NCBI RefSeq assembly: GCF_013839515.1
Contig: NZ_JACDNQ010000011.1
Span: 1 to 64,000 of the forward strand
DNA length: 64,000 nucleotides
Origin: Natronomonas salinimetallica
Lineage (GTDB): Archaea > Halobacteriota > Halobacteria > Halobacteriales > Haloarculaceae
Direction of reading: 5' to 3'
This document shows positions 1 to 52,362 of the stretch, one piece after another; the first letter of the stretch is position 1, and each line of letters starts with the position of its first letter. The translations under genes and the position numbers were made by a program. A model generated the notes under the pieces. It worked only from the letters and a program-made list of their open reading frames with translations, did no database searches and was not told the DNA's origin.

Positions 1-72
1 GAAGCCTCCCGCTTCAATTCCTTTGATTTAGCGACCGATCCCGCCGCTGTCTAGTGATTCAACAGAGCCGTT

Positions 73-190
73 TCATTTGATTTCGTCCACCAGTATCATT
101 TGATTTCGTCCACCAGTATCATTTGATTTCGTCCACCAGTATCATTTGATTTCGTCCACCAGTATCATTTGATTTCGTCCACCAGTATCA
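73..190. repeat. Tandem array of a mobile-element terminus, 5 x 23 bp
   Basis: Five identical 23-bp units start at 73, 96, 119, 142 and 165 and are followed by a final TCA at 188-190. Each unit is TCA plus a 20-bp stretch ending GTCCACCAGTA. This is the right terminus, together with the flanking TCA, of the 108-bp inverted-repeat element found whole at 33190-33297 and, inverted, at 52130-52237. The bases just before the array (about 50-72) only weakly resemble the interior of that element, so the rest of the copy seems lost. There are no spacers, so it is not a CRISPR array. Confidence 0.9.
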
Positions 191-198
191 AATTGACC

Positions 199-225
199 CC
201 CTCCCACGACTGAACTCGTGGGCTC
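199..225. repeat. Hairpin resembling an IS200/IS605-type end
   Basis: A 7-bp stem CCCACGA (203-209) and TCGTGGG (216-222) enclose a 6-base loop. Haloarchaeal IS200/IS605-type elements often carry a similar short hairpin near one end, so this may be a leftover of such an element; no tnpA or tnpB sequence is next to it. Equally it could be the terminator of a gene lying to the left of the window. Identity is inferred from appearance only. Confidence 0.35.
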
Positions 226-295
226 TCTCCTGTACTCTCTGTAGGGGGCGACGCCGAACGCGTATCCTTAAAAGTCCGCGTCTCGAAATGTGCGT

Positions 296-859
296 ATGAA
301 ACACGTCACAGTGCCGAAGGACCGGATCGGCGTCCTGATCGGCGAGGGGGGTGAAACGATGCGTGAGATCGAAGCGCGCGCGGAGGTCCGCCTCGATATC
401 GACTCCGAGACGGGGTCGGTCCGCGTCGAGTCGGTCGGCGACCCGATCACCGGCCTCAACGGTCCCGACATCGTCAAGGCGATCGGCCGCGGGTTCGCCC
501 CCGAGGACGCCCTCCGGCTGCTCGAAGACGACATGCAGATGTTCGAACTCGTCGACATCGAGGCCGCGACACGCAACAAAAAGGACCTCCGGCGGAAGAA
601 GGGCCGGCTCATCGGCGAGGGGGGCCGGACCAGAGAGCTGATGGCCGAACTCAGCGGTGCCGACGTCGTCATCTACGGGACGACGCTCGGAATCATCGGC
701 TCACCCGAGCAGGTCGACGCCGTCCGCAGCGCCGCCGAAATGATCCTCGACGGCGCGCCCCACGGCGCGGTCTACTCGTTCCTCGAACGCCGCCACAACG
801 AGATGCGCTCGAACGACATCGAGTACCACCAGTTCGCCGACGGCTCCCGGTCGGCGTGA
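296..859 (+). CDS. KH domain RNA-binding protein, archaeal Pno1/Dim2-like
   Basis: A 187-residue protein with two KH-type units, each carrying the GEGG version of the GxxG RNA-binding loop (LIGEGGETMREIE near the N-terminus, LIGEGGRTRELM in the second half). This is the domain pattern of archaeal Dim2/Pno1 (Krr1) proteins, which bind the 3' end of pre-16S rRNA during small-subunit maturation and work with the Rio1 kinase. A GTG at 290 is in frame, but I chose ATG 296 because an A/T-rich TATA-like stretch (CTTAAAA, 266-272) lies about 27 bases upstream, giving the leaderless arrangement usual here. The upstream neighbour is not a gene but the element-derived tandem array. Confidence 0.88.
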   Translation: MKHVTVPKDRIGVLIGEGGETMREIEARAEVRLDIDSETGSVRVESVGDPITGLNGPDIVKAIGRGFAPEDALRLLEDDMQMFELVDIEAATRNKKDLRRKKGRLIGEGGRTRELMAELSGADVVIYGTTLGIIGSPEQVDAVRSAAEMILDGAPHGAVYSFLERRHNEMRSNDIEYHQFADGSRSA

Positions 860-1050
860 ACCGTCTCGGCCTGCTCCGGCGGTAGAACGGACGGGACGAT
901 ACCAACGGACCCGCCGACAGCCCGAAACCGTCCGACTGCGGCGCGAGCGCCGGAACCGCGACGACCGAATATAAAATAGTTTTGTGCGGAGGTGTCACAC
1001 GGTGATCCGGGACCCGTCCGGCGGTTTTTCGTCCGGCGTTTCAGCAAGAT

Positions 1051-1057
1051 TTATATA
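1051..1057 (+). promoter_or_regulatory. TATA box of the thermosome gene
   Basis: TTATATA is centred about 30 bases before ATG 1085, predicting transcription start within a few bases of the start codon, i.e. a leaderless or nearly leaderless mRNA. The preceding CAGCAAGA may act as the BRE. Confidence 0.7.
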
Positions 1058-1084
1058 GAACCACAGACAATCATTCGGACGACT

Positions 1085-2779
1085 ATGGCACAACAGATGG
1101 GCAACCAGCCGATGATCGTCCTCTCCGAGGAGAGCCAGCGAACCTCCGGACAGGACGCACAGTCGATGAACATCACCGCCGGAAAAGCGGTCGCCGAGTC
1201 CGTACGTACGACGCTCGGCCCCAAGGGGATGGACAAGATGCTCGTCGACTCGACGGGTAACGTCGTCGTCACGAACGACGGCGTCACCATCCTCGGTGAG
1301 ATGGACATCGAACACCCCGCAGCGAACATGATCGTCGAGGTCGCAGAGACACAGGAGGAAGAGGTCGGCGACGGGACGACCACCTCGGTCGTCGTGGCTG
1401 GCGAGCTCCTCTCGCAGGCCGAAGACCTCCTCGAACAGGACATCCACGCGACGGTGCTGGCACAGGGGTATCGCCAGGCCGCCGCCGAGGCCAAAGAGAT
1501 CCTCGGCGACATCGCGATCGACGTCGACGCCGAGGACACCGACGTGCTCGAATCCATCGCCGCGACGGCGATGACCGGCAAGGGCGCGGAGAACTCGAAG
1601 GACCTGCTCTCCGAGCTCGTCGTCGACTCGGTGCTCGCGGTCGCCGACAACGACGATATCGACACGGACAACATCAAAGTCGAGAAGGTCGTCGGCGGTG
1701 CCGTCGACGAGTCAGAGCTCGTCGAGGGCGTCCTCGTCGGCAAGGAGCGCGTCCACGACAACATGCCCGCGCTCGTCGAGGACGCGGACGTCGCGCTGCT
1801 CGATACGGCGATCGAGGTCAAAGAGACCGAGATCGACGCCGAGGTCAACGTCACCGACCCCGACCAGCTCGAGCAGTTCCTCGAACAGGAGGAAAAACAG
1901 CTCCGCGAGATGGTCGACACGCTCGTCGACGTCGGTGCGGACGTCGTCTTCTGTCAGAAGGGCATCGACGACATGGCCCAACACTACCTCGCCCAGGAGG
2001 GTATCCTCGCGGTCCGTCGCGCGAAGAAGTCCGACATGAAAGCGCTCGCGCGCTCGACGGGCGGCCGGCTCGTCTCCAACATCGACGACATCACCGACGA
2101 CGACCTCGGCTTCGCCGGCTCGGTCACCCAAAAGCCCATCGCGGGTGACGAGAAGATCTTCGTCGAAGACGTCGAGGAGGCCCGCGCGGTCACGCTCATC
2201 CTCCGCGGCGGCACCGAACACGTCGTCGACGAGATCGAACGCGCCATCGAGGACAGTCTCGGCGTCGTTCGTACGACGCTCGAGGAGGGCAAGGTCCTCC
2301 CCGGCGGCGGCGCTCCCGAGATCGCGCTGGCGCTCGGCCTGCGTGACTTCGCCGACTCCGTCGAGGGTCGCGAACAGCTCGCCATCGAGGCCTTCGCCGA
2401 CGCGGTCGACGTCATCCCGCGGACGCTCGCCGAGAACGCCGGGCTCGATCCGATCGACTCGCTCGTCGAGCTTCGGAGCCGACAGGCCGACGACAGCACC
2501 GCCGGCCTCGACGCCTACACCGGCGACGTCATCGACATGGAAAGTGAGGGCGTCGTCGAACCGCTCCGCATCAAGACGCAGGCCATCGAGTCCGCCACCG
2601 AGGCGGCCGTGATGATCCTCCGCATCGACGACGTCATCGCCGCGGGCGACCTCAAGGGTGGCTCCAGCGACGACGACGACGACGAGGCACCCGGCGGCCC
2701 CGGCGGCGCAGGCGGTATGGGCGGCGGCATGGGCGGTATGGGCGGCGGCATGGGCGGCGGCATGGGCGGCATGATGTAG
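1085..2779 (+). CDS. Thermosome subunit (group II chaperonin)
   Basis: A 564-residue CCT/TCP-1-type chaperonin subunit that forms double-ring ATP-driven protein-folding complexes in the cytosol. The N-terminus [13 protein letters not shown], the ATP-binding GDGTTT (residues 95-100), the [13 protein letters not shown] motif and the C-terminal glycine/methionine-rich GGM tail (about residues 538-564) are all diagnostic. The frame stays open upstream to 992, but the TATA box at 1051-1057 and the family N-terminus fix the start at 1085. Haloarchaea usually carry two or three paralogues; which one this is cannot be told here. A T-tract (2859-2864) about 80 bases past the stop may terminate transcription. 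Confidence 0.97.
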
Positions 2780-2858
2780 GCCGCGCTCCGCGAGTACCGA
2801 CTCCACGTCCGCCCCCGAGGCCGCTGTCGAATCGCTCGAATCCGTTCGAACATCACTA

Positions 2859-2864
2859 TTTTTT
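2859..2864 (+). terminator. T-tract after the thermosome gene
   Basis: Six consecutive T residues in an otherwise GC-rich 216-base gap, about 80 bases beyond the stop codon. Archaeal RNA polymerase terminates intrinsically at such T-tracts; no strong stem precedes it. Confidence 0.4.
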
Positions 2865-2995
2865 CCCGAGACGGCCACCGCAAAACGGAGCGCGTGTCGT
2901 GACACGAGATCGACTGCCACAGCCGGGCCGTCCTGCGATCCCCGATAGGTTTTTGTCGGTCGCTCGGTAAGAACTGTCATACGACACGCCCATCG

Positions 2996-5107
2996 ATGAG
3001 CGAACAGGACCCCGTCTTCGGCTTCGAACCGCTCGAGGATCCCCCGGGCGTCGAGGTCGTCGACCGCCTCGAACGGCTGCGGTACCGGCTCCACGCCGAC
3101 CGACCGGTCTCGCCGACCCCGATCGACACCGACCCGTTTTATTTTCCCGTCGACAGCGCGGTCGGGATCACGGCCGGGGAGGTCGTCCTGCCGACGGTCG
3201 TGACGGTCTGTGTCCGAAACGACGCGGGCGAGATGGTGACCGAGGTCGGCCACCTCGAGGAAGGATCGGTCGGCGAGGGGAGCTACGTCCTCGAGTTGGG
3301 CGCACAGATCAAGACCTACGTCGAAGTCGAGGGACCGATCGAGATCACGGCGACGCTCCTGGAGACGCGCATCGAGTTCGACGGGCCGAGAGAGTTCCGG
3401 ATCGGCGCGCAGTCGTGGCACGACCGGCCGACGGCGACGGTGACGACCACGGCCGATCCCCACGACGTGATGGCCGCGGTGAGCACGTTCGGGTCGGCGC
3501 TGAAGACCACCTCCCCGGAGCGGTCGTTTCCCTCCCTGCGGGGACATCCCCCGGCGGTCGAACTCGGCGACCGACTGGATGTGCCGGACTCGGTCGAGTC
3601 CCCCGAGACGGGGATCAGCTTGGAGCTCCCGCCGACCCGGGGAGCCGTGTACGCGGCCGCGCCGCTGGCGTACTATCTGGGTGCCGACGTCGTGGCGGGA
3701 CCGGAGCCGCGGTTGGTGACCGATACGGGCTTCGAGTACTCGCTTTCCTCGCCGAAGTCCTTCGAGGAGAACGTCGAGCGGACGCTCAAGCGGCTCTTCG
3801 TGTTGGACTGTGTCACCCGGACCGAGGGGCTCTACGAGATCGATCTACGCGCCCGCAACGACGTCGAGCAGTACGTCGACCTCGACTGGGGTCGGCTCTA
3901 CGAACGGCCCCTGGCCGAGCAGGTGGCGACGTACCTGGAGGTCCCGTACGCGCTCGTCGAGGACGTCGTTCCGGAGTGGCGACTGACGGTTCACGTCGAG
4001 ACGACGGACGAAACCGTCGAGCAGTTGCCGTTCGTCGTCGACGACCTCGCGGTCGTACGGACGGCCGATACGCCCGACACGGCGCAGCCGGAGGCCGGGT
4101 CCACGGCGGCGCTGACGCGAAACGGCGTCCTCACGCGGTCGGTCGCCGGGCCGACCGACGCCGGGGCAGAGAAGCCGGCCTACGTCCAGCCCCGGTCGTC
4201 CGGCTCCCTCGAACAGGCCTGGATCGGCGACCGCATCCCCATCGGCGCGAGCAAGCTGACGGCGGCGGCCTTCCGGAACCGCCTCGATCGGGAGACGACC
4301 GAGGGGGACATCTCGATCACCATCGTGTTGAACGACCCGCGGATGCGCGAGGAGCGCGACCTCGTCGGCGACGTCTACGGCGACCGGGAGAACCTGCCCT
4401 TCGACGTCCGGGTGCGGCGGGATCTGACCGTCGAGGGACTCCGCGAGGCGTTCGGGGCGGACCGAAACTTCCTCCACTACATCGGCCACACCGAGCGGGA
4501 CGGCTTCGAGTGCGCCGACGGCACCCTCGATGCGTCGACGCTCGGATCGACCGGCGTCGACGCGTTCCTCCTGAACGCGTGTAACTCCTATCGCCACGGT
4601 CTGGAGGTCATCGAGGCCGGGGCAGTCGGCGGCATCGTCACGCTGAACGACGTCCTGAACGACGGCGCGGTACGCATCGGCGAGTTGATCGCCCGGCTGT
4701 TGAACGCCGGCTTCCCGCTCCGCGCGGCGCTGACGATCGCCCGCGAGGAGTGCGTCCTCGGCGGCCAGTATATCGTCGTCGGTGACGGCGGCGCGACCGT
4801 CACGCAGGCCGCGGGCCGGACCCCGAACGTCCTCGACGTGACACCTGAGGGGGACGGCTTCGAGGTCGAAATCAAGACCTACGCGACCGACGAGGCGGGG
4901 CTCGGAAGCGTATTCAAACCGCACATCAGCGGCAACGGGGAGCACTTCCTGAGCTCGGGTGAGATCGCGTCGTTTCACGTCTCCCAACAGGAGCTCATCC
5001 GGTTTTTCGAGCTGGAGAACGTACCGGTTCGACACGACGGGGAACTCTCCTGGAGCCACTCCTTGACAGTCGACGATCTGCGGCGGCCAATGTCGCCGCA
5101 GTACTGA
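2996..5107 (+). CDS. CHAT-domain (caspase-like) protein
   Basis: A 703-residue protein without signal peptide. Its C-terminal part (about residues 420-640) looks like a CHAT domain, a caspase-fold cysteine protease relative: His494 and His498 in LHYIGHT and Cys529 in LNACNSY are the expected catalytic His and Cys, followed by a glycine-rich segment (AVGGIVTLND). The N-terminal 400 residues are beta-rich and match nothing I can name. CHAT proteins in bacteria act in programmed cell death and in defence (for example the gasdermin- and Csx29-activating proteases); a substrate for the haloarchaeal type is not known to me. It stands alone between the thermosome gene and a convergent response regulator gene, so context does not suggest a partner. 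Confidence 0.75.
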   Translation: MSEQDPVFGFEPLEDPPGVEVVDRLERLRYRLHADRPVSPTPIDTDPFYFPVDSAVGITAGEVVLPTVVTVCVRNDAGEMVTEVGHLEEGSVGEGSYVLELGAQIKTYVEVEGPIEITATLLETRIEFDGPREFRIGAQSWHDRPTATVTTTADPHDVMAAVSTFGSALKTTSPERSFPSLRGHPPAVELGDRLDVPDSVESPETGISLELPPTRGAVYAAAPLAYYLGADVVAGPEPRLVTDTGFEYSLSSPKSFEENVERTLKRLFVLDCVTRTEGLYEIDLRARNDVEQYVDLDWGRLYERPLAEQVATYLEVPYALVEDVVPEWRLTVHVETTDETVEQLPFVVDDLAVVRTADTPDTAQPEAGSTAALTRNGVLTRSVAGPTDAGAEKPAYVQPRSSGSLEQAWIGDRIPIGASKLTAAAFRNRLDRETTEGDISITIVLNDPRMREERDLVGDVYGDRENLPFDVRVRRDLTVEGLREAFGADRNFLHYIGHTERDGFECADGTLDASTLGSTGVDAFLLNACNSYRHGLEVIEAGAVGGIVTLNDVLNDGAVRIGELIARLLNAGFPLRAALTIAREECVLGGQYIVVGDGGATVTQAAGRTPNVLDVTPEGDGFEVEIKTYATDEAGLGSVFKPHISGNGEHFLSSGEIASFHVSQQELIRFFELENVPVRHDGELSWSHSLTVDDLRRPMSPQY

Positions 5108-5125
5108 CACCGCCCTCGCTTAGCT

Positions 5126-6052
5126 TTACTCGTCGCAGTCGTGGTCCCAGAGGATGCCGATACAGCCCAGTTCGTCGTGGTACTTGATCGAGCCGCCGTG
5201 GACCTCGACGTGGATCCCGTCGCCGTTGGCCCGCTCGCCGGTGAACTCGTACTCGAAGGTATCGTGGGCTTCCGGATCCATCTCGATGAAGGTCCGTAGC
5301 GTCGATTCGGCCGCCTCGTCGGCAGCGATGACGACCGGCGATGCCCCGACGAGTTCTTCTTGTGCGTACCCGAAGACGTCCGCGAACCGTTCGTTGACGT
5401 AGACGAACTCGTCGCCCTGGACGATGAACACGCCGGCTAGATCCTGTTCGACCAGCCGCCGGTACCACGACAGCGTCTCCCAAAACTGCTGTCTGGCCCG
5501 GTAACGCTCGATGACGTTCCTGACGCGGTTCGCGAGCACCTCGTATTGATCGGTGCCGGCCCCCTTCTGCATGTAGTCTGTGACCCCCGTGGCGATAGCC
5601 TCGCTTGCGATCTCCTCGCTGCCCTTGCCGGTGAAGAGAATAAACGGGAGGTCCGCATACCGGTCACGGACGATCTCGAGGAACTCGATCCCGTCGGTGG
5701 TCGGCATGTCGTAGTCGCTGATGACACAATCGAAGGCCCCGTCCTCGAGGCGGTCGAGCGCCTCGACGACGGTCGTCGTCGTCGAGACCGTGAGATCGTC
5801 GTCGATCCGCTCCAGATAGGTCGCCGTCAGGTCGCTTATCGCCGGATCGTCGTCGACGTGGAGGACGCTGACCTCTTTTGTGTCCGCGTCCGCGGACACC
5901 GGAACCGGCACCTCGATGGCGTCCTGATCGAGGCCCTCCGGTATCTCGCCCCTGAGGAGGGGTGGTTTCCCATCTCGAAGCGGGGGATCACCGCTGAAGG
6001 CCGAACGGGAGATCGCCACCCGCTCGCTCCGTTCTCGCTTGCTCGTGTTCAT
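5126..6052 (-). CDS. Response regulator receiver-PAS protein
   Basis: A 308-residue two-module signalling protein: a CheY-like receiver (about residues 60-180) with the acidic cluster HVDDDP and phospho-acceptor Asp113 in ISDYDMP, then a PAS domain (about 193-300) with FEYEFTGERANGDGIHVEV. There is no kinase, DNA-binding or other output domain, a common haloarchaeal type that probably works through protein contacts. The frame is open to an ATG at 6091, but a TATA-like TATTTAGG lies about 6098-6105, so transcription should begin near 6070 and ATG 6052 (MNTSKRER) is the better start. Residues about 12-40 are arginine/proline-rich, unlike the family, and contain a perfect short hairpin at DNA level (5949-5962), so the true protein may begin later. 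Confidence 0.85.
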   Translation of the reverse strand: MNTSKRERSERVAISRSAFSGDPPLRDGKPPLLRGEIPEGLDQDAIEVPVPVSADADTKEVSVLHVDDDPAISDLTATYLERIDDDLTVSTTTTVVEALDRLEDGAFDCVISDYDMPTTDGIEFLEIVRDRYADLPFILFTGKGSEEIASEAIATGVTDYMQKGAGTDQYEVLANRVRNVIERYRARQQFWETLSWYRRLVEQDLAGVFIVQGDEFVYVNERFADVFGYAQEELVGASPVVIAADEAAESTLRTFIEMDPEAHDTFEYEFTGERANGDGIHVEVHGGSIKYHDELGCIGILWDHDCDE

Positions 6053-6499
6053 GTGTGGGATCAGCCCTACCACCGGGTACTCCCCATGCACCTAAATATG
6101 TTGTATACCCGGCCAACACGTCGGCGCTCCGAGCACCCCTGTGGGATTCGGAGAAGGGACCACCCGGCGACGAGTGAGAGCCGCCTCCGGCGACCATCGG
6201 GGCAACGGGTGAGAGCCGCCCCGGTTCCGTGGCCGTTCCCCCGGCCCGGCGTCGACGGGGGCTCCCGAACGGTCGTCGGTACCGACTACCGCCCGCCCCG
6301 GCACCGTTCGTCGCACCGAATCACCTTTTGCATCGAGCCGGCCCCGATCGAGCGGCGGACATCGCCGTATTCTCCTTTTCTGTGGAACAGTTGCGTTCAT
6401 CGCACAATTTTCTTAAACTTTTAACTTAATCTAATTAAAATTATGTAGGAAAGTATCAAATAAATTTAATATCAACCCGGTCGGTTGGTATCCTGTATC
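6053..6499. other. Long gene-free region between divergent genes
   Basis: About 450 bases without a convincing gene. The part to 6370 is GC-rich with short open frames lacking conserved features. From about 6405 to 6475 the sequence is very AT-rich (TTTTCTTAAACTTTTAACTT and on), which is exceptional in this window and probably holds the promoter of the small gene at 6500 (AATTTAATAT at 6463-6472). The TATA box of the response regulator gene is near 6098-6105 on the other strand. Confidence 0.6.
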
Positions 6500-6631
6500 A
6501 TGTCAGATACAGACATCGCGGCGTACCTGCGCGAGCACCCTCGAATGATGGGCGTACTGTTCACACTGACTGTCCTGCTCACGCAAGTGGGATCCGTTGC
6601 GGCGACGGCGAACGGCAGCACGATCAGTTAG
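6500..6631 (+). CDS. Small single-span membrane protein (43 aa)
   Basis: A 43-residue open frame: a hydrophilic N-terminus MSDTDIAAYLREHPRMM, then a hydrophobic segment of about 20 residues (GVLFTLTVLLTQVGSVAATA) and a short polar tail. Haloarchaeal genomes contain families of tiny proteins with this same LREHPRM-membrane span layout (I recall them as the DUF7503 type); the function is unknown. An AT-rich promoter with a TATA-like element about 30 bases upstream supports expression. It is convergent with the aminotransferase gene. Confidence 0.7.
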   Translation: MSDTDIAAYLREHPRMMGVLFTLTVLLTQVGSVAATANGSTIS

Positions 6632-6730
6632 ACCCGCGGACGCGGCGACGTTCTTTTTCCGGGAAATCGGACGGACAGCGACGAGCTGACGGACTCGTTC
6701 GCCGATGGGAGCATCGATAGAGCCGCGTCG

Positions 6731-7879
6731 CTACCGCACCGCGGCCGTCGCCCCGCGCATGACTTCGAGTGCCTCCTTCAGCGTCTCGACGTCGGTCGCA
6801 TAGGAGATCCGGGCGTGGCCGGCCCCACCCTCGCCGAAGGCCTCGCCGGGGACGACGACGACGCCGCGGTCGATGACCTCGTCGACCCAGCCGTCGGGGA
6901 CGCGCGGCATCGCATAGAAGGCACCCTCCGGCGTCGGCACGTCGAGGCCCATCCCTTCGAGGCCCTCCAACACGACGTCGCGGCGCGTCTCGAAGGCCGA
7001 CCGCATCTCCTCGACGCGGCCCTGTGGCCCCGAAAGCGCCGCCTCGGCGGCGTACTGGGCGGGCGCGGACGCACAGGCCTGGACGTACTGGTGGACCCGG
7101 AGCATCCGCTCGATTCGTTCGGTGGAGGCACTCACCCACCCGAGCCGCCAGCCGGTCATCGAGTAGGCCTTCGAGCAGGCGTTGACGACCGCGACGTTGC
7201 CCGAGTCGGTGAAGTCGGCGGGCGAGTGGTGTTCGCCATCGAAGACGAACGGTTCGTAGACCTCATCGGAGAGACACAACACGTCGTGTCGGTCCGCGAT
7301 TCGGGCGAACTCGCGCATGTCGTCCTCGCTTTGGACCGCACCGGTCGGGTTCGCGGGGCTGTTGACGACGAACAGCGCCGTCTCGTCGGTGATGGCGTCC
7401 TCGACGGCGTCGGGTGCCATCGTGAGGTCCTCGCGCAGGTCGACGGGCTTCGGTTCGCCGCCCGCCAGATGCGTCAACGCCTCGTAGGAGACGAAGCCGG
7501 GGTCGGGGTAGACGACCTCCTCGCCCGCCTCGACGTGGGCCTCGATGGCGATGTGGAGTGCCTCGCTGCCGCCCGCGGTCGCGATGACGTCGTCGGGATC
7601 GACGGAGAAGTCGTTGTCCCGGTCGTGTTTCGCCGCGATGGCGTCCCGTAACGACTGGGTGCCCTTGTTGGACGTGTAGGCGTCCGTCGCCCCCGATTGG
7701 ATCGCCTCGATCGCCGCCTCGCGGGCGTGATTCGGGGTCGGAAAGTCCGGTTGTCCCAACCCGAGGTTGATCGCGTCCTCGCCGGCCGCTTCGAACACCT
7801 CTCGGATGCCGCTGATCGAGATCCGCTCGACGCGGGATGAAAACCGACTCATACGGACGGGGGCGTCCGGAACAGCCAT
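6731..7879 (-). CDS. Class I/II PLP-dependent aminotransferase
   Basis: A 382-residue fold-type I aminotransferase, related to aspartate aminotransferases. Seen: LGLGQPDFPTP near the N-terminus, NSPANPTG (about 173-180), DEVYEPF, and the cofactor lysine Lys237 in ACSKAYSMTGWRLGW. It would transfer an amino group between amino acids and 2-oxo acids with pyridoxal phosphate; substrate (aspartate, or aromatic or branched amino acids) cannot be read from the motifs. The frame is open to 8014, but ATG 7879 or 7852 (MSRFSSRVERIS) fit the family start. A TATATA-like stretch near 7970 on this strand would leave a leader of several tens of bases. Confidence 0.9.
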   Translation of the reverse strand: MAVPDAPVRMSRFSSRVERISISGIREVFEAAGEDAINLGLGQPDFPTPNHAREAAIEAIQSGATDAYTSNKGTQSLRDAIAAKHDRDNDFSVDPDDVIATAGGSEALHIAIEAHVEAGEEVVYPDPGFVSYEALTHLAGGEPKPVDLREDLTMAPDAVEDAITDETALFVVNSPANPTGAVQSEDDMREFARIADRHDVLCLSDEVYEPFVFDGEHHSPADFTDSGNVAVVNACSKAYSMTGWRLGWVSASTERIERMLRVHQYVQACASAPAQYAAEAALSGPQGRVEEMRSAFETRRDVVLEGLEGMGLDVPTPEGAFYAMPRVPDGWVDEVIDRGVVVVPGEAFGEGGAGHARISYATDVETLKEALEVMRGATAAVR

Positions 7880-8125
7880 AGTTCTGCCGTGTCGCCGCGG
7901 GAGGCGGTGGACGGAGAACGCACGGCGGAGCGGCGTCACGGGGGACCCCAAATAGCAGCAATAATATCCTGTATATCGGACGATCTTTCGAACGGGCAGC
8001 CCCGGATAGACCACGTTATAGAGGGCCTCTACGTCCGATCCTACGTTCCGCCTCCGTCATACGTCGGGTCCAGCGCTACCGCTACCTGTCAGTGAATACG
8101 TATGGCCCCCGTATTCCCTATACGG

Positions 8126-9142
8126 ATGGAATTCGACTTCTCACGGCGCGAGTATCTCGGCGGGCTCGGTGCGGCACTGGCTACCGGGAGCGCGGGCTGT
8201 CTCGGAAGCGGCGGCGGCGGCTCGCTGGAGGAACTCACCGTGGCGTACATGCCGATCTATCCCGATCTACAGTATTTCGTCATGGAGGGCGAGGGCTACC
8301 TCGGCGAGATCGACGCCGAAATCGACGGCCGGGAGTTCACGGACGGGCCGGCGATCGTCCAGGCCTACGGCGGCGGCGACGTCGACGTCGCGATGTTCGG
8401 CATCGTCCCCTCGATGATCGTCATCGACCGGGGGATCCCGGCGCAGGTGACGGCGGCGAACATCGTCGAGCCGATGGGGATCATGGCCGACGAGGAGTTG
8501 CAGTCGCTTTGGGCCGACCACGGAGCCGACGCCTTCGACGTCTGGGCGGACGAACACGGTCGACGCTTCCGGTTCGGGACGTTCCCACAGGGGTCGGTCC
8601 CGGACGTGTTGCTCCGGTACTGGCTCGGGGACGTCGTCGGCGTCGACCCCGAGTCGGCGGTCGACATCATCGAGATCAACGGCGCGAACGCCGTCTGGCA
8701 GGCGATTGCGGGCGGCGAGATCGATGGTACGTCGATCATGGAGCCGGTACCGACGATCGCCGCGGAGGAGGGTTCGGACGTGACGATGTTCCGCACGGCG
8801 AGTGAGATCATGCCCGGACAGCCCGCGGCGGTGACGCTCATGAGCGACGCGGTCAGAGAATCGCCGCTCGCGGCGCAGTTCGTCGAACAGCACGTCCGGG
8901 CGACGGAGTTCATCGCCGATAACCCGGACGGGACGGCCGAGCACGTCGAGAGCGGGATCGGGATGCCCGCGGAGCGCGCCCGGCGGGCCCTGGATTCGCC
9001 GCTGTCGAACTTCGTCACCGACCCGCGGGAGATCGAGAGCGGGACGGAGGTCTTCGCCGAGTTCGCCCACGACAACGGCCAGATCGACGAGCAGCTGACG
9101 ACCGAGGGGATCTTCGATTACGATGTCTACGACAGCATATAA
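8126..9142 (+). CDS. ABC transporter substrate-binding lipoprotein (SsuA/NrtA/TauA-like)
   Basis: A 338-residue extracellular binding protein. The N-terminus has a twin-arginine signal (SRREYLGG) and a lipobox ending SAGC, so it should be exported folded and lipid-anchored at the cell surface. The mature part has the type 2 periplasmic-binding fold of the nitrate/sulfonate/taurine family ([27 protein letters not shown]-like GDVDVAMFG). It is first in an operon with the permease at 9170 and the ATPase at 9970. An earlier ATG at 8102 is in frame, but ATG 8126 gives the normal Tat signal. Substrate is not determinable; sulfonates, nitrate or a thiamine precursor are possible. Confidence 0.9.
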
Positions 9143-9169
9143 TCACCGACACGGTGAGTGAGCACACGG

Positions 9170-9973
9170 ATGGCAACGAAGACCGACGTAGACGAAGCAT
9201 TCGACGGGTACGTCGAGGGCTCGCTCGGGGCGATCGACCCCCGGCGGGCGGTCCTCGGGACCGCCGGGATCGCCGGCTTTCTCGCGCTGTGGTGGGCCGT
9301 CTCGCTCACCCAGCCCGCGTTCGTGTTGCCGTCGCCGGCCGCCGTCGGCGAGACGTTCTACGCGGAGGCCGCAAGCGGCGAGATGGCGACCGCGATCGGC
9401 CAGAGCGTCCGTCACTGGATCCCAGGTGCCGCGATCGGGACCGGCCTCGGCGTCGCGGCCGGGGTCGGTCTGGCGTGGAGTTCTCTCGCCGACGACGTCT
9501 CCGCGCCGATCGTCCGGACCCTGCGACCGGTGCCGCCGCTGGCGCTCATCGGCTTTGCGATCGCGTGGTTCGGTATCAACCACGCCGGGGCGGCCTTCAT
9601 CATCGCCGTCGGCGCGTTCTGGATCAACTTCTACGCCGCCTACGGGGGCGTCGAGGGCGTCTCCGAGGACCTCCTGGACGTCGCCCGCAGCCTCGGCGTC
9701 GAGGGCGATTTCGAGTTGCTGCGATCGGTCGTCGTCCCCGCGGCCTCCCCGGAGATCCTGACGGGGATCCGGACGGGGATCGGGCGGTGTTGGATGCTCG
9801 TCGTCGCCTCCGAGATATTCGGCGTCCCGGGCATCGGACGGCGCATCCTGCGCGCCTCGAACAACCTTCAGGTCGACGTCGTGATCGCGTACATTCTCGT
9901 GTTGAGCCTGCTGTTCTTGCTCGTCGACGTAAGCTTCAGGGCGGTCCAACGGAGGTTGCTCGCGTGGCGATGA
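9170..9973 (+). CDS. ABC transporter permease (SsuC/NrtB/TauC-like)
   Basis: A 267-residue inner-membrane permease with about six hydrophobic spans and the binding-protein-dependent transport signature around residues 165-215 ([18 protein letters not shown], then [19 protein letters not shown]), which contacts the ATPase. It sits 27 bases after the binding-protein gene and overlaps the ATPase gene by ATGA at 9970-9973, so the two are translationally coupled. A GTG at 9158 is possible but ATG 9170 is preferred. Confidence 0.92.
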
Positions 9974-10737
9974 CGGCCCACGGTACGCACGTCCGGGTCG
10001 CGGACATCGCCAAGCACTACGAGGGCACGGAGGGACCGATCCGGGCGCTGGAGGACGTCTCCTTCGGCGTCTCGGAGGGCGAGTTCGTCTGTCTCGTCGG
10101 CCCCTCCGGCTGTGGAAAGACGACGCTGTTTCGGATCATCGCCGGCCTCGAATCGGCGACGGCGGGCGACGTCTTCTTGAACGACGAGCGAGTCGACAGT
10201 CCGACGCCGGACATGGGCGTCGTCTTCCAGGAGTATCACCTCTTTCCGTGGCGGACCGTCCGGGGGAACGTCGCGTTCGGCCTCGAAAAAAGCGACGTCG
10301 CCGGTGAGAAACGCGGAGAACGGGTCGACCGCCTGATCGAGTTGGTCGGCCTCGAGGGGTTCGGCGACAGCTACCCCAAAGAGCTCTCGGGCGGCATGAA
10401 ACAGCGCGTCGCCATCGCGCGGGCGCTGGCGGTCGATCCCGACTTGCTGCTCATGGACGAACCCTTCGGTGCCGTCGACGCCCAGACGCGCGAGATGCTG
10501 CAGACCGAACTGCTCGACATCTGGCGCGAGACCAAAAAGACCGTCCTCTTCGTCACCCACGACGTCGAGGAGGCGGTGAAACTCGCCGACCGGATCGTCG
10601 TGATGGCCAAGGAGCCGGGGCGGGTCCGGGAGGTCGTCGACGTCGATATGTCGCGCCCGCGGGTCCGCTCGGACGCCGAGTTCGGCCGCTATTACGAGCG
10701 CGTGCTGGGGCTCATCCGCGGCGAGCGGGCCGTCTGA
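9970..10737 (+). CDS. ABC transporter ATP-binding protein (SsuB/NrtD/TauB-like)
   Basis: A 255-residue ATPase that powers the transporter. Walker A is GPSGCGKTT (residues 44-52), the signature is [15 protein letters not shown], Walker B is [12 protein letters not shown], and the switch histidine follows in VTHDVEEAV. The [13 protein letters not shown]-loop is typical of the SsuB/TauB group. Starts inside the permease stop codon and ends the operon; a convergent small gene follows after 3 bases. Confidence 0.94.
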
Positions 10738-10740
10738 GGT

Positions 10741-10893
10741 TCACTCGCTCTTTCGCGCCTCGCGGAGTTCCTCGATGTGGCGTTCGAGCCTGCGGAGCGT
10801 CGCGTCCGCGTCGGCGTAGCCCTCCTCGTACTCGCCGTAGGCGTCGTCGGCCTTCTTTAGGAAGCGCTCGATGGCGTCGGCGGCGTCGGTCAT
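10741..10893 (-). CDS. Small acidic coiled-coil protein (50 aa)
   Basis: A 50-residue highly charged protein (MTDAADAIERFLKKADDAYG...) that is predicted helical throughout, with heptad-like spacing in RRLERHIEELREARK. No domain is recognised. It is convergent with the ABC operon, three bases between stops, and divergent from the surface protein gene. Amino-acid composition and third-position GC are normal for the window, supporting a real gene. Confidence 0.6.
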   Translation of the reverse strand: MTDAADAIERFLKKADDAYGEYEEGYADADATLRRLERHIEELREARKSE

Positions 10894-11020
10894 GGCTGGT
10901 ATTCGGTCGGTCGGGTCAAAAGCCGGACGGTGTGAAATCGATTCGATGCGCACGGCAGCGCCCGTTTCGGCCGCCGAAACAGGTCACGACTTGATAATCG
11001 GATCGTGTGAATCCCGCATA

Positions 11021-13933
11021 ATGGCTGTATCTCCCGCTCGCCCGCCGCTGCGCGTGCGCCGGTTCGGAGCGGTCTGTCTCTGTGTCGCCCTCGCGGCGCT
11101 CGTCGGTGTCGGGCTGGCCGGCGGGACGGCGGCGGCACAAAGCGCGGCGACGATAGAAAACGTGGCAATCGACGACGACGAGGGCCTCGCGGGCGTCACG
11201 GATACCCACAGGGTGACCGTCGAGACGGCGAACACGGCGGGGACGGACGCGACGGTCGAACTCGATTTTACGGGGTGGCCCGCCGATCGGACGGAGAACA
11301 TCGACGTCGTGACCGGACGGACGGTGGAGGGGCCGACGGACGACGGCGTCCAACTCAAACCGGAGGGCGGGACGGTCGTCGTCGACATCAGAGTCACGCA
11401 CCCGACGACGGCGGGCGACGTACCGATCGAGGCGGCTCTCATCGGGGACTCCGGCGGTCGTCTCGGGTCCGAATCGGCGTCGATCACGGTCGAGTCGGTG
11501 GACTTCGAGCCGTCACTCGGTAGCACCAAAATCGACGCCTTCGGCGCGGAAGCGGATCACACCACCGAGTTGACCGGACTCGACAACGCGCTGCCGTCCG
11601 ACGTCGTGGTGATCTCGTCGCCGGATCTGACCGACGACGAACTGTTCGAGATCCTCGACGGGGACGAACGGGAGACCGTCTACCGTCGCGGTGGCGAGAT
11701 TCGTCTCGAGCCTCCCGCGACGCAGAGTGAAACGCCGATCGAGCTGTCGTTTCGGGACTTCGATGCCGCGAGCTACCGGTTCGATCTCTACCCGGAGCGG
11801 TTCTCCGAGGACTGTTCGGAGCTGCCGCCGAATGACAGATGTCCGCGGCTGGAACTCGACGTGATCGAGCCCGACGTCGAGGGGTCGTTCGATACCGACC
11901 GCCACGAGGTGTCGGCCGGCGATATGGTGACCGTCGATATGAGTATCAGCGGCGTCGACGGGGGGTATCTACTCGTCGGTGCCGACCACAAGGCACGGGA
12001 GGGCAGGCCGACCAACCTCTTCGACATCGTCTACGTCGAGGGGGGAACGTTGACGATCAACACCCGCCTGCTCGGCACCAGCGCCGATACCGAGGACGTG
12101 TATATGACCGACGGTACCGTTCGGAGTTACCTCCATGACCCACCGACGGGCGAAACGGAAGGGGGAGGCGAAAAACGCCTCTCGGAGGTCCGCTTCAGGG
12201 GCGAGGACGGCCGCCGGACCTGGGAGAGCCTGACGACCTTCCGCGAGGAGATGGGGATGGGACCGCTGCCCTGGCCGGTGCAAGCCGAGCGCTACCGGTT
12301 CGTCCTCGGCGCGGACGGGACCGTCGAGTTGCGCGAGGACGGCATCGCCGACTTCGCTCATCCGATCGCGCGCTCGAACCTGCAGATGACCGAACCGGGC
12401 GTCGAGTCGGTCGAGACGTACGTCGCCCCCCGCGGCCCGGCAAACGAGTTCGAGACCCCCGGCGATATTGGCTCACTGACCGACGGGATGACCCAACGGG
12501 AGACGGTCGCAAAGGAAGACCGGCTCGTCTTCGAGGTGAACGCAACCGGCATCTACGGGGCGCTTCATCACCTCGCCGGCGAGGAACCGGACACGTTCGA
12601 GGAGGGGATCCACCCCGAGGTGTTTCAATCCCTGCTCGGTCTCACGGACGAGGGGATCGTCCTCGAAGCCCTCCAGACGGACATGACGTCGAACGAACCG
12701 CGGACCGAACTCGACCTCGGTGGGGCGACGGACGGCGAGGCGTACGTGCTGCCCGACATCGACGAGAACAACGAACGCGTGGTCGACGGGCGGTTCTACC
12801 TCGTCGTCGACACCCGGGACGCGGGCGCGTTTGAAAACGCGTTCAGCGACGGCGAGAGCGACGACTTCGAGTTCGAGTACGGCTACGAATCCCCGCCCGA
12901 GGAGCGCTACCGCTTCGGCAACGACGCGCTCTCGACGCGACCGGAGCCGTTCGACCCGGAGTCCGAACCGACCGAGGACGGCACCGAACACTACCCGTAT
13001 CTGAACCGGGCGGAGACCGGCACCACGGAGACGGTCCCGTTCACGGTCGCGGAGTCGTACGCCGAGTACGACCGGACGACGAATCAGGGTCAAGTCGCGC
13101 TGTCGAACGGGACGAACGTCACACTGACCGGCGAGACGAACGTCGCGCCCGCCTCGGAGTTCTACATCCAGATCGTCGCCGACGACCGCTCGAATCCGAC
13201 GCGGATCACCATCGACGACGTCGACGTCGACGAGAACGGCACGTTCGAGGCCACGAAGGACCTCTCCGTGCTCCGGGTCGGGGAGGGCGTCGAGGTGGAG
13301 TTCTACGCCGAGGACCGCATCGTCGACAAGCGCGGCGGGGTCGTAAGCGGCGACCGCGGGACGCCGAGTCGCTTCGTGATACGCGAGGCGCCCGACCGGG
13401 TGACCGCCGGAACGGCCGACCGGGTGACGGTCGGAGCGGTGATCGAAAACACCGGGGCCGCGACGGAGTCGAAGCCGGTCGATCTCCGGATCGGCGGCGC
13501 GGACGTCGACTCGGTCCGGCGGACGCTCGCCGGCGGTGCGAACCGATCGGTCGAACTCGACGCCGGGACGCTGGAGGAGGGCACCTACCGGTACGTGCTC
13601 TCGACGCCCGACGACGAGGCCGTCGGCGAGTTGGCCGTCGGGCGTGCGGCTCCGGTCGGCGTGGTCGATACCGAACGCGACGACGGCGATGAGGGCGGCG
13701 AGGACGGTACCGACGACGGCGATGAGGGCGGCCAAGACGGTACCGACGACGGCGATGAGGGCGGCCAAGACGGTACCGACGGCGACAACAGCGACGACCC
13801 GGGGCTCCCGACCGACGACGTGCTCGGGATGCTCGGGGCGCTCGGGGCGCTCTCGGGTGCCGTCGGGGCGGAACACGCCGTCGGCGGGGCGGCGGTCGTC
13901 GGCGGGATCCACGTGCTCGGCTACTGGGTATGA
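11021..13933 (+). CDS. Large secreted surface protein (BGTF-type)
   Basis: A 970-residue exported protein. A signal peptide (about residues 1-35: arginine-rich start, hydrophobic core, GGTAAAQ) is followed by a long series of beta-rich domains. The layout (N-terminal domain on gene-transfer-like surface folds, central VSAGD and EVNATGIYGAL segments, late CARDB-like module) resembles haloarchaeal BGTF surface glycoproteins. Near the C-terminus a very acidic linker made of three near-identical 12-residue repeats (DDGDEGGQDGT type; DNA 13680-13790) leads to a glycine/alanine-rich hydrophobic tail (LGMLGALGALSGAVG) that may anchor it. Several N-x-S/T sites are present. Alternative starts further upstream lack a signal peptide. 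Role is probably cell-envelope structure or adhesion. Confidence 0.75.
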   Translation: MAVSPARPPLRVRRFGAVCLCVALAALVGVGLAGGTAAAQSAATIENVAIDDDEGLAGVTDTHRVTVETANTAGTDATVELDFTGWPADRTENIDVVTGRTVEGPTDDGVQLKPEGGTVVVDIRVTHPTTAGDVPIEAALIGDSGGRLGSESASITVESVDFEPSLGSTKIDAFGAEADHTTELTGLDNALPSDVVVISSPDLTDDELFEILDGDERETVYRRGGEIRLEPPATQSETPIELSFRDFDAASYRFDLYPERFSEDCSELPPNDRCPRLELDVIEPDVEGSFDTDRHEVSAGDMVTVDMSISGVDGGYLLVGADHKAREGRPTNLFDIVYVEGGTLTINTRLLGTSADTEDVYMTDGTVRSYLHDPPTGETEGGGEKRLSEVRFRGEDGRRTWESLTTFREEMGMGPLPWPVQAERYRFVLGADGTVELREDGIADFAHPIARSNLQMTEPGVESVETYVAPRGPANEFETPGDIGSLTDGMTQRETVAKEDRLVFEVNATGIYGALHHLAGEEPDTFEEGIHPEVFQSLLGLTDEGIVLEALQTDMTSNEPRTELDLGGATDGEAYVLPDIDENNERVVDGRFYLVVDTRDAGAFENAFSDGESDDFEFEYGYESPPEERYRFGNDALSTRPEPFDPESEPTEDGTEHYPYLNRAETGTTETVPFTVAESYAEYDRTTNQGQVALSNGTNVTLTGETNVAPASEFYIQIVADDRSNPTRITIDDVDVDENGTFEATKDLSVLRVGEGVEVEFYAEDRIVDKRGGVVSGDRGTPSRFVIREAPDRVTAGTADRVTVGAVIENTGAATESKPVDLRIGGADVDSVRRTLAGGANRSVELDAGTLEEGTYRYVLSTPDDEAVGELAVGRAAPVGVVDTERDDGDEGGEDGTDDGDEGGQDGTDDGDEGGQDGTDGDNSDDPGLPTDDVLGMLGALGALSGAVGAEHAVGGAAVVGGIHVLGYWV

Positions 13934-43383: not shown

Positions 43384-43496
43384 TCATACTGTCGGACGTA
43401 ATTTCGTGAATACCTGAATCGTTCAGATAGACGAAACCGTACTGTGACACGACGCTCAGAGATTTTCGATTCAAGTAGTTACGTCCGACAGTATCA
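43384..43496. mobile_element. Short inverted-repeat element, class A (copy 1)
   Basis: A 107-bp element at 43387-43493 between direct repeats TCA (43384-43386 and 43494-43496). Termini TACTGTCGGACGTAA and its complement match over 15 bases; a second paired part (TACCTGAATCG/CGATTCAAGTA) follows after an internal loop ATTTCGTGAA. Same length and structure as the copy at 52907-53013. It begins one base past the Mut7-C stop codon. Confidence 0.92.
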
Positions 43497-48259: not shown

Positions 48260-48338
48260 TACTGTCGGCTATGATTTCGTGAAGCTATCGCGTCACCGTC
48301 GCGCGAATAGCTTGAGATAGGTATACCCGACAGTATGA
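48257..48338. mobile_element. Short inverted-repeat element, class C (copy 1), at a stop codon
   Basis: A 76-bp element at 48260-48335 between direct repeats TGA (48257-48259, the stop codon of the preceding gene, and 48336-48338). Ends TACTGTCGG / CCGACAGTA; the inner arms AAGCTAT/ATAGCTT also pair, around a core CGCGTCACCGTCGCGCGAA. Confidence 0.92.
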
Positions 48339-52240: not shown

Positions 52241-52280
52241 GGCTATCGGGGCGGAGAGCGTCGAGACGAGCGCTGTCGCG

Positions 52281-52362
52281 TCGGACCGGGGAGTGCTGTC
52301 AGATCGGACCGGGGAGCGCTGTCAGGTCGGACCGGGGAGTGCTGTCAGATCGGACCGGGACG
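52281..52362. repeat. Tandem array, 23-bp unit
   Basis: Three 23-bp units TCGGACCGGGGAGYGCTGTC + ARA/AGG starting at 52281, 52304 and 52327 plus a partial fourth at 52350. Lies in the 231-base gap between the element after msrA and the usp gene at 52472. Unrelated to the 23-bp array at the window start. Confidence 0.93.

What the first reader, a model, noticed from the sequence alone, without database searches (positions are those of the whole stretch)
73..190. Element terminus multiplied as a 23-bp tandem array
The array is five copies of TCA plus the terminal 20 bp of the class B element. In whole class B copies a TCAT sits 23 bp inside the right end, matching the target TCA at the boundary, so slippage or repeated one-ended events between TCA and TCA would generate exactly this unit. 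The rest of the element is gone. It may be a trace of aborted transposition, and it lies just upstream of the KH-protein gene, whose usual upstream neighbours are not seen.
Basis: partly seen in the sequence, partly recalled or inferred. Interest (0 to 1): 0.6.

Follow-up and report, generated by a model that had tools for sequence, protein, structure and literature searches.

The report
Repeated tip of a haloarchaeal mini-transposon
The last 23 bases of one copy of a small, very common mobile element were copied at least five times in a row, most likely by DNA-copying slippage, and the rest of that element is not lost but lies on another piece of the assembly, split off by a larger inserted jumping gene.

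Summary
The array is real: window 73-190 is five perfect 23-bp units (TCA plus the terminal 20 bp of the class B element) plus a closing TCA. It is the only such array found in this genome and 19 congeners. Class B is a 108-bp MITE: 63 intact copies were examined, and 58 have a matched 3-bp TNA target duplication.

The window begins at a contig end. Positions 1-69 are the end of a collapsed IS5-family element inserted in this class B copy with an 8-bp duplication (GTTTCATT). The remaining left arm of the element lies on contig C17, with the matching TCA. So the element is interrupted, not gone, and nothing indicates aborted transposition.

Contigs at this IS overlap by exactly 96 nt (k about 97). 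At that k an array of six or more units differs from five by a single 97-mer, so "five" is only a lower bound.

Best mechanism: slippage or unequal exchange between the internal TCA and the TCA target duplication, then ordinary minisatellite growth. This is a known kind of event. One oddity remains: the array is on the only IS-interrupted copy among 33 with a TCA duplication (1/33, post hoc).

The parts
1..69 (-). End of a multi-copy IS5-family insertion sequence, collapsed in the assembly; its transposase gene lies off the window, pointing away from it
   Evidence: Same 69 bases at the ends of C12, C10, C13, C4 and C28 with different continuations; complete relative with transposase in L079
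70..77 (.). GTTTCATT, 8-bp target duplication of the IS inside class B
   Evidence: Complement AATGAAAC directly after the other IS end on C17 and C7 end
70..95 (+). Right-end 26 bp of the interrupted class B MITE, including array unit 1 (73-95)
   Evidence: Identical to the right end of intact class B copies
73..187 (+). Tandem array, five identical 23-bp units (73-95, 96-118, 119-141, 142-164, 165-187); lower bound
188..190 (.). TCA, right copy of the class B target duplication (left copy on C17)
   Evidence: C17 arm ends GTCAGTA|TGA, that is TCA|TACTGAC in this orientation
191..247 (+). Target-side sequence with a hairpin (CCCACGACTGAACTCGTGGG), probably a remnant of another mobile element; not shared with the nearest congener
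   Evidence: Similar stretch in L103; fold z -3.8 for 190-250; homology to G003 begins at 248
267..274 (+). TATA-like box CTTAAAAG of the KH gene, intact
   Evidence: Conserved in four congeners
296..859 (+). KH-domain protein gene, arCOG04150

Best explanation
A class B MITE (108 bp, non-coding, imperfect terminal inverted repeats, 3-bp TNA target duplication) inserted at a TCA site upstream of the KH gene. This placed a TCA directly outside its right end, 23 bp from a TCA inside that end. An IS5-family element inserted 26 bp from the right end with an 8-bp duplication, before or after the array formed. Replication slippage or unequal exchange between the two TCAs duplicated the 23 bp, and once a 23-bp direct repeat existed, ordinary minisatellite slippage or exchange raised it to at least five identical units. 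Shown: anatomy, both kinds of target duplication, exact unit, uniqueness, and that the copy number is a lower bound. Inferred: slippage as the mechanism, its order relative to the IS, and the pairing of C17 with C3. No function is needed to explain it.
For: Five perfect units in the TCA-to-TCA phase. Class B is a MITE with matched TNA duplications in 58 of 63 copies. IS ends, matched 8-bp duplications and the left arm on C17. The array copy has a TCA duplication, as TCA-TCA slippage requires. Perfect identity of units fits a recent origin. Minisatellites arising from mobile-element pieces bounded by short repeats are described (PMC6947457).
Against: Only 3 bp of repeat start the process, shorter than the 5-10 bp cited in PMC6947457, and 32 other copies with a TCA duplication show no array. 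Flank homology of this copy is not better than that of the others. The C17-C3 pairing rests on target duplications, not on reads or gene order.
Confidence: 0.62

Rival explanations
1. Transposase-made array: the MITE's transposase joins the right end of one copy to the internal TCA (a TNA target) of a sister copy, a one-ended event that adds exactly one 23-bp unit each time. IS interruption, by separating the two MITE ends, could favour such faulty events.
For: The internal TCA fits the TNA target rule and gives exactly this unit. The array copy is one of only two IS-interrupted copies seen.
Against: No transposase for this family was found in the genome. The event does not need a TCA duplication, and the one array has it, though about half of copies do. 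No other array among 63 intact copies.
Confidence: 0.15
2. The IS triggers it: breaks or repair at the IS end, 3 bp from the first TCA, start the duplication, which then grows by slippage.
For: Among 33 copies with a TCA duplication, only the IS-interrupted one has the array.
Against: Noticed after the fact; one event. The other IS-interrupted copy (C12, TAA duplication) has no array.
Confidence: 0.12
3. Repeated nested insertion of class B into the internal TCA of its own right end, each leaving one 23-bp unit on the right.
For: Such insertion gives the right-hand sequence exactly; one MITE inside another is seen in a sister family at C12:120645.
Against: It would leave a stack of left arms; C17 shows one left arm only, followed by ordinary sequence. 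No class B copy was found inserted at the internal TCA of another.
Confidence: 0.03
4. Assembly artefact: the array is not in the genome.
For: It lies at a contig end next to a collapsed IS.
Against: A k-mer assembly with k about 97 needs 97-base stretches lying wholly inside the array and across both of its borders. Only the copy number is uncertain.
Confidence: 0.05
5. The array is a functional upstream regulatory repeat of the KH gene.
For: It ends about 105 bp upstream of the start codon.
Against: The conserved TATA-like box lies downstream of it and is intact; upstream sequence is not conserved among congeners; no notable structure in the array; found in one species only.
Confidence: 0.03

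Closest known systems
Minisatellites born from transposable-element pieces flanked by short direct repeats (Haber and Louis model, reviewed in PMC6947457)
   Same: A piece of a mobile element bounded by short repeats becomes a tandem array of identical units
   Different: Archaeal; the starting repeat is 3 bp, and one of the two copies is the element's own target duplication
MITEs of haloarchaea (Haloquadratum, PMC3119063)
   Same: Short, non-coding, inverted ends, fixed-length target duplication, many copies
   Different: The transposon supplying the transposase was not found here; one copy carries the amplified tip
IS5-family insertion sequences of haloarchaea
   Same: Transposase of the related IS matches the IS5_2 model; inverted ends GATTCAACA(G/C)AGCC; 8-bp duplications at five of six paired sites here
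   Different: The full element is not assembled in this genome; two of six copies sit at the same GTTTCATT site of class B MITEs

Membership tests
MITE (class B) | Short non-coding element with terminal inverted repeats | tested here: met
   61 of 63 copies are 108 bp; ends TACTGACGGACAAAA and TACTGGTGGACGAAA
MITE (class B) | Fixed-length target duplication | tested here: met
   Matched TNA triplet in 58 of 63 copies
MITE (class B) | Transposon with the same ends that supplies the transposase | tested here: inconclusive
   None among PF01609 matches of this genome and G003; other transposase families and collapsed copies not covered
PATE / IS200-IS605 type | No terminal inverted repeats and no target duplication (PMC3119063) | tested here: not met
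   Class B has both
IS5-family insertion sequence (window 1-69) | IS5-type DDE transposase | tested here: inconclusive
   Relative L079 encodes it (IS5_2, 237.7 bits); the copy here is known only by its ends, 83-84% identical at this end
IS5-family insertion sequence (window 1-69) | Constant target duplication | tested here: met
   Identical 8 bp on both sides at five of six sites
TE-derived minisatellite | Head-to-tail identical units derived from a mobile element | tested here: met
TE-derived minisatellite | Copy-number variation between strains | not testable with these tools
   One genome per species is held

The most novel reading that the evidence does not exclude
Interruption of a MITE by another IS next to its end leaves an orphan transposon end that the MITE's transposase repeatedly joins to the TNA site 23 bp inside itself, so that the end amplifies as a tandem array: a new route from transposon to minisatellite.
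Probability: 0.08. Interest if true: 0.5.

Novelty: new member of a known kind. Interest (0 to 1): 0.2.

Why it matters
It is a clean, recent archaeal example of a mobile-element end turning into a minisatellite, in which the element's own target duplication supplies one of the two short repeats. It also shows how a contig end inside a collapsed IS can make an interrupted element look like a lost one, and how assembly k-mer size can cap the apparent copy number of a tandem array.

Tried and rejected
IS200/IS605 (PATE) origin of class B: rejected, because it has inverted ends and TNA duplications. IS6-family identity of the IS, suspected from its GGCTCTGTTGAA end: not supported by the PF13610 search, whose only hit was below cut-off; the relative's transposase is IS5 family. 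Extended flank homology as the reason this copy expanded: rejected, since it ranks no better than most of the 33 copies with a TCA duplication. Nested insertions: disfavoured. Secondary structure of the array: nothing unusual. Checking the C17-C3 join by gene order: inconclusive, since no relative examined shows C17 sequence upstream of the KH gene and upstream genes vary. Exact scan of GTDB genomes for two-unit arrays: none. Looser scan for the element tip: three Bacteroides records only, taken as chance or unrelated because they are not archaeal. Class B in the plasmid and phage collections: none.

Full report
The observation. Window 73-190 is exactly (TCATTTGATTTCGTCCACCAGTA)x5 followed by TCA. 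Shuffles of the window give no match to the unit. It is the only place in this genome, and in the 19 congeners searched with up to three mismatches, where the class B tip is doubled; the single other hit, in G017, is one three-mismatch match and not an array of this unit. An exact scan of the GTDB genome collection found no doubled tip either, with the window's own species possibly left out.

Where it lies. The window is G000:C3:1-64000, so base 1 is a contig end. Window 1-96 is identical to the reverse complement of the end of contig C12, and window 1-69 recurs at the ends of C10, C13, C4 and C28. These are one end of a multi-copy insertion sequence that the assembly collapsed. A complete relative in another genome of the same order (L079) encodes a 278-aa IS5-family transposase (IS5_2, 237.7 bits), and close relatives of that protein are found on many haloarchaeal plasmids. 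The other end of this IS was found at C25, C16, C1, C17 and at both ends of C7.

The missing part of the element. Two of the other-end contigs, C17 and the end of C7, carry the rest of a class B element directly after the IS end, beginning AATGAAAC, the complement of the GTTTCATT at window 70-77. So the IS inserted in class B with an 8-bp duplication. The class B target duplications pair the contigs: C17 (TCA) with C3 (TCA, the array), and C7 end (TAA) with C12 (TAA). Other copies of the IS also have matched 8-bp duplications (AATTAAAC for C16/C28, GTTTTAAC for C7 start/C10, GGATAGAC for C1/C4); C25/C13 is unmatched. The pairing rests on duplications, not on reads, but under either pairing a class B left arm lies beyond the IS. 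The two interrupted copies differ at a base of the class B arm (GGATC/GAATC, both variants present in intact copies), which suggests two independent insertions at a preferred GTTTNATT-like site (inference).

What class B is. Sixty-three intact copies were examined; 61 are 108 bp, and 58 have the same TNA triplet on both sides (TCA 32, TGA 12, TAA 9, TTA 5). The ends are an imperfect inverted repeat (TACTGACGGACAAAA and TACTGGTGGACGAAA), and the interior is a long hairpin (z -5.7). It is a MITE. Related MITEs with TACTG ends are present too, one of them inserted inside another. No transposase with such ends was found among PF01609 matches in this genome or in G003.

The copy number. The IS-end contigs tested (six on one side, five on the other) diverge from a sister contig exactly 96 nt after their start, so the assembly graph used k of about 97. 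An array of five units plus TCA (118 bp) holds no repeated 97-mer. Arrays of six or more contain the same 97-mers plus one. Five is therefore the value at which this assembly stops being able to count, and the true number may be larger.

Mechanism. The unit extends from the TCA inside the right end to the TCA of the target duplication. Slippage or unequal exchange between the two gives the first duplication, and the 23-bp repeat then expands easily. This matches the described origin of minisatellites from mobile-element pieces bounded by short repeats (PMC6947457), with a shorter initiating repeat. One-ended joining of the right end to the internal TCA by the MITE's transposase would give the same letters and is not excluded. 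It does not require a TCA duplication; this copy has one, but so do about half of all copies, so that is weak evidence for slippage. Nested insertions are disfavoured because only one left arm lies on C17. What marks this copy among 33 with a TCA duplication is the IS end 3 bp from the first TCA. The chance is 1 in 33, noticed after the fact, so it is a lead and not a result. Flank homology does not mark it.

Relation to the KH gene. The KH protein is arCOG04150. Sequence shared with the nearest congener starts at 248, and the TATA-like CTTAAAAG at 267-274 is conserved in four congeners. Upstream genes vary; in G003 the upstream reading frame looks like a photolyase (my reading of the translation). 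The array therefore lies outside the core promoter, and nothing suggests a function. Positions 191-247 look like a remnant of another mobile element.

Verdict. A true, probably recent, low-copy minisatellite made from the tip of an IS-interrupted MITE. The anatomy is well supported, slippage is the likeliest mechanism, and the kind of event is known.

Noticed in passing
contigs C7 end (80902-80974) and C12 end (243983-244078): A second class B copy is interrupted by the same IS at the same GTTTCATT site, with TAA duplications and no array: a hot spot, or a composite that moved as a unit.
   Followed up: partly
contigs C25 start and C13 end: IS junctions without matching 8-bp duplications (GACTCATC and GTATAAAG): a likely rearrangement through IS copies.
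   Followed up: no
window 43387-43493 and 48260-48335; C12:120645-120820: Several further MITE families of about 100 bp with TACTG(N)(C/T)GG ends and TNA duplications; at C12 one is inserted in another. Their transposase was not found.
   Followed up: partly
window 191-247: Hairpin sequence TTGACCCCCTCCCACGACTGAACTCGTGGGCTCTCTCCTGTACTCTCTGTAGG resembles a stretch in L103 and looks like an IS200/IS605-type end remnant.
   Followed up: partly
contig C17 (L124) 1-13275: A phosphonate (C-P lyase, phn) gene cluster with two PhoU-like genes lies next to the other arm of the interrupted element.
   Followed up: no
window 52268-52359: Another four-copy tandem array with a 23-bp period, of unrelated sequence, about 116 bp from a class B end; possibly coding.
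   Followed up: no
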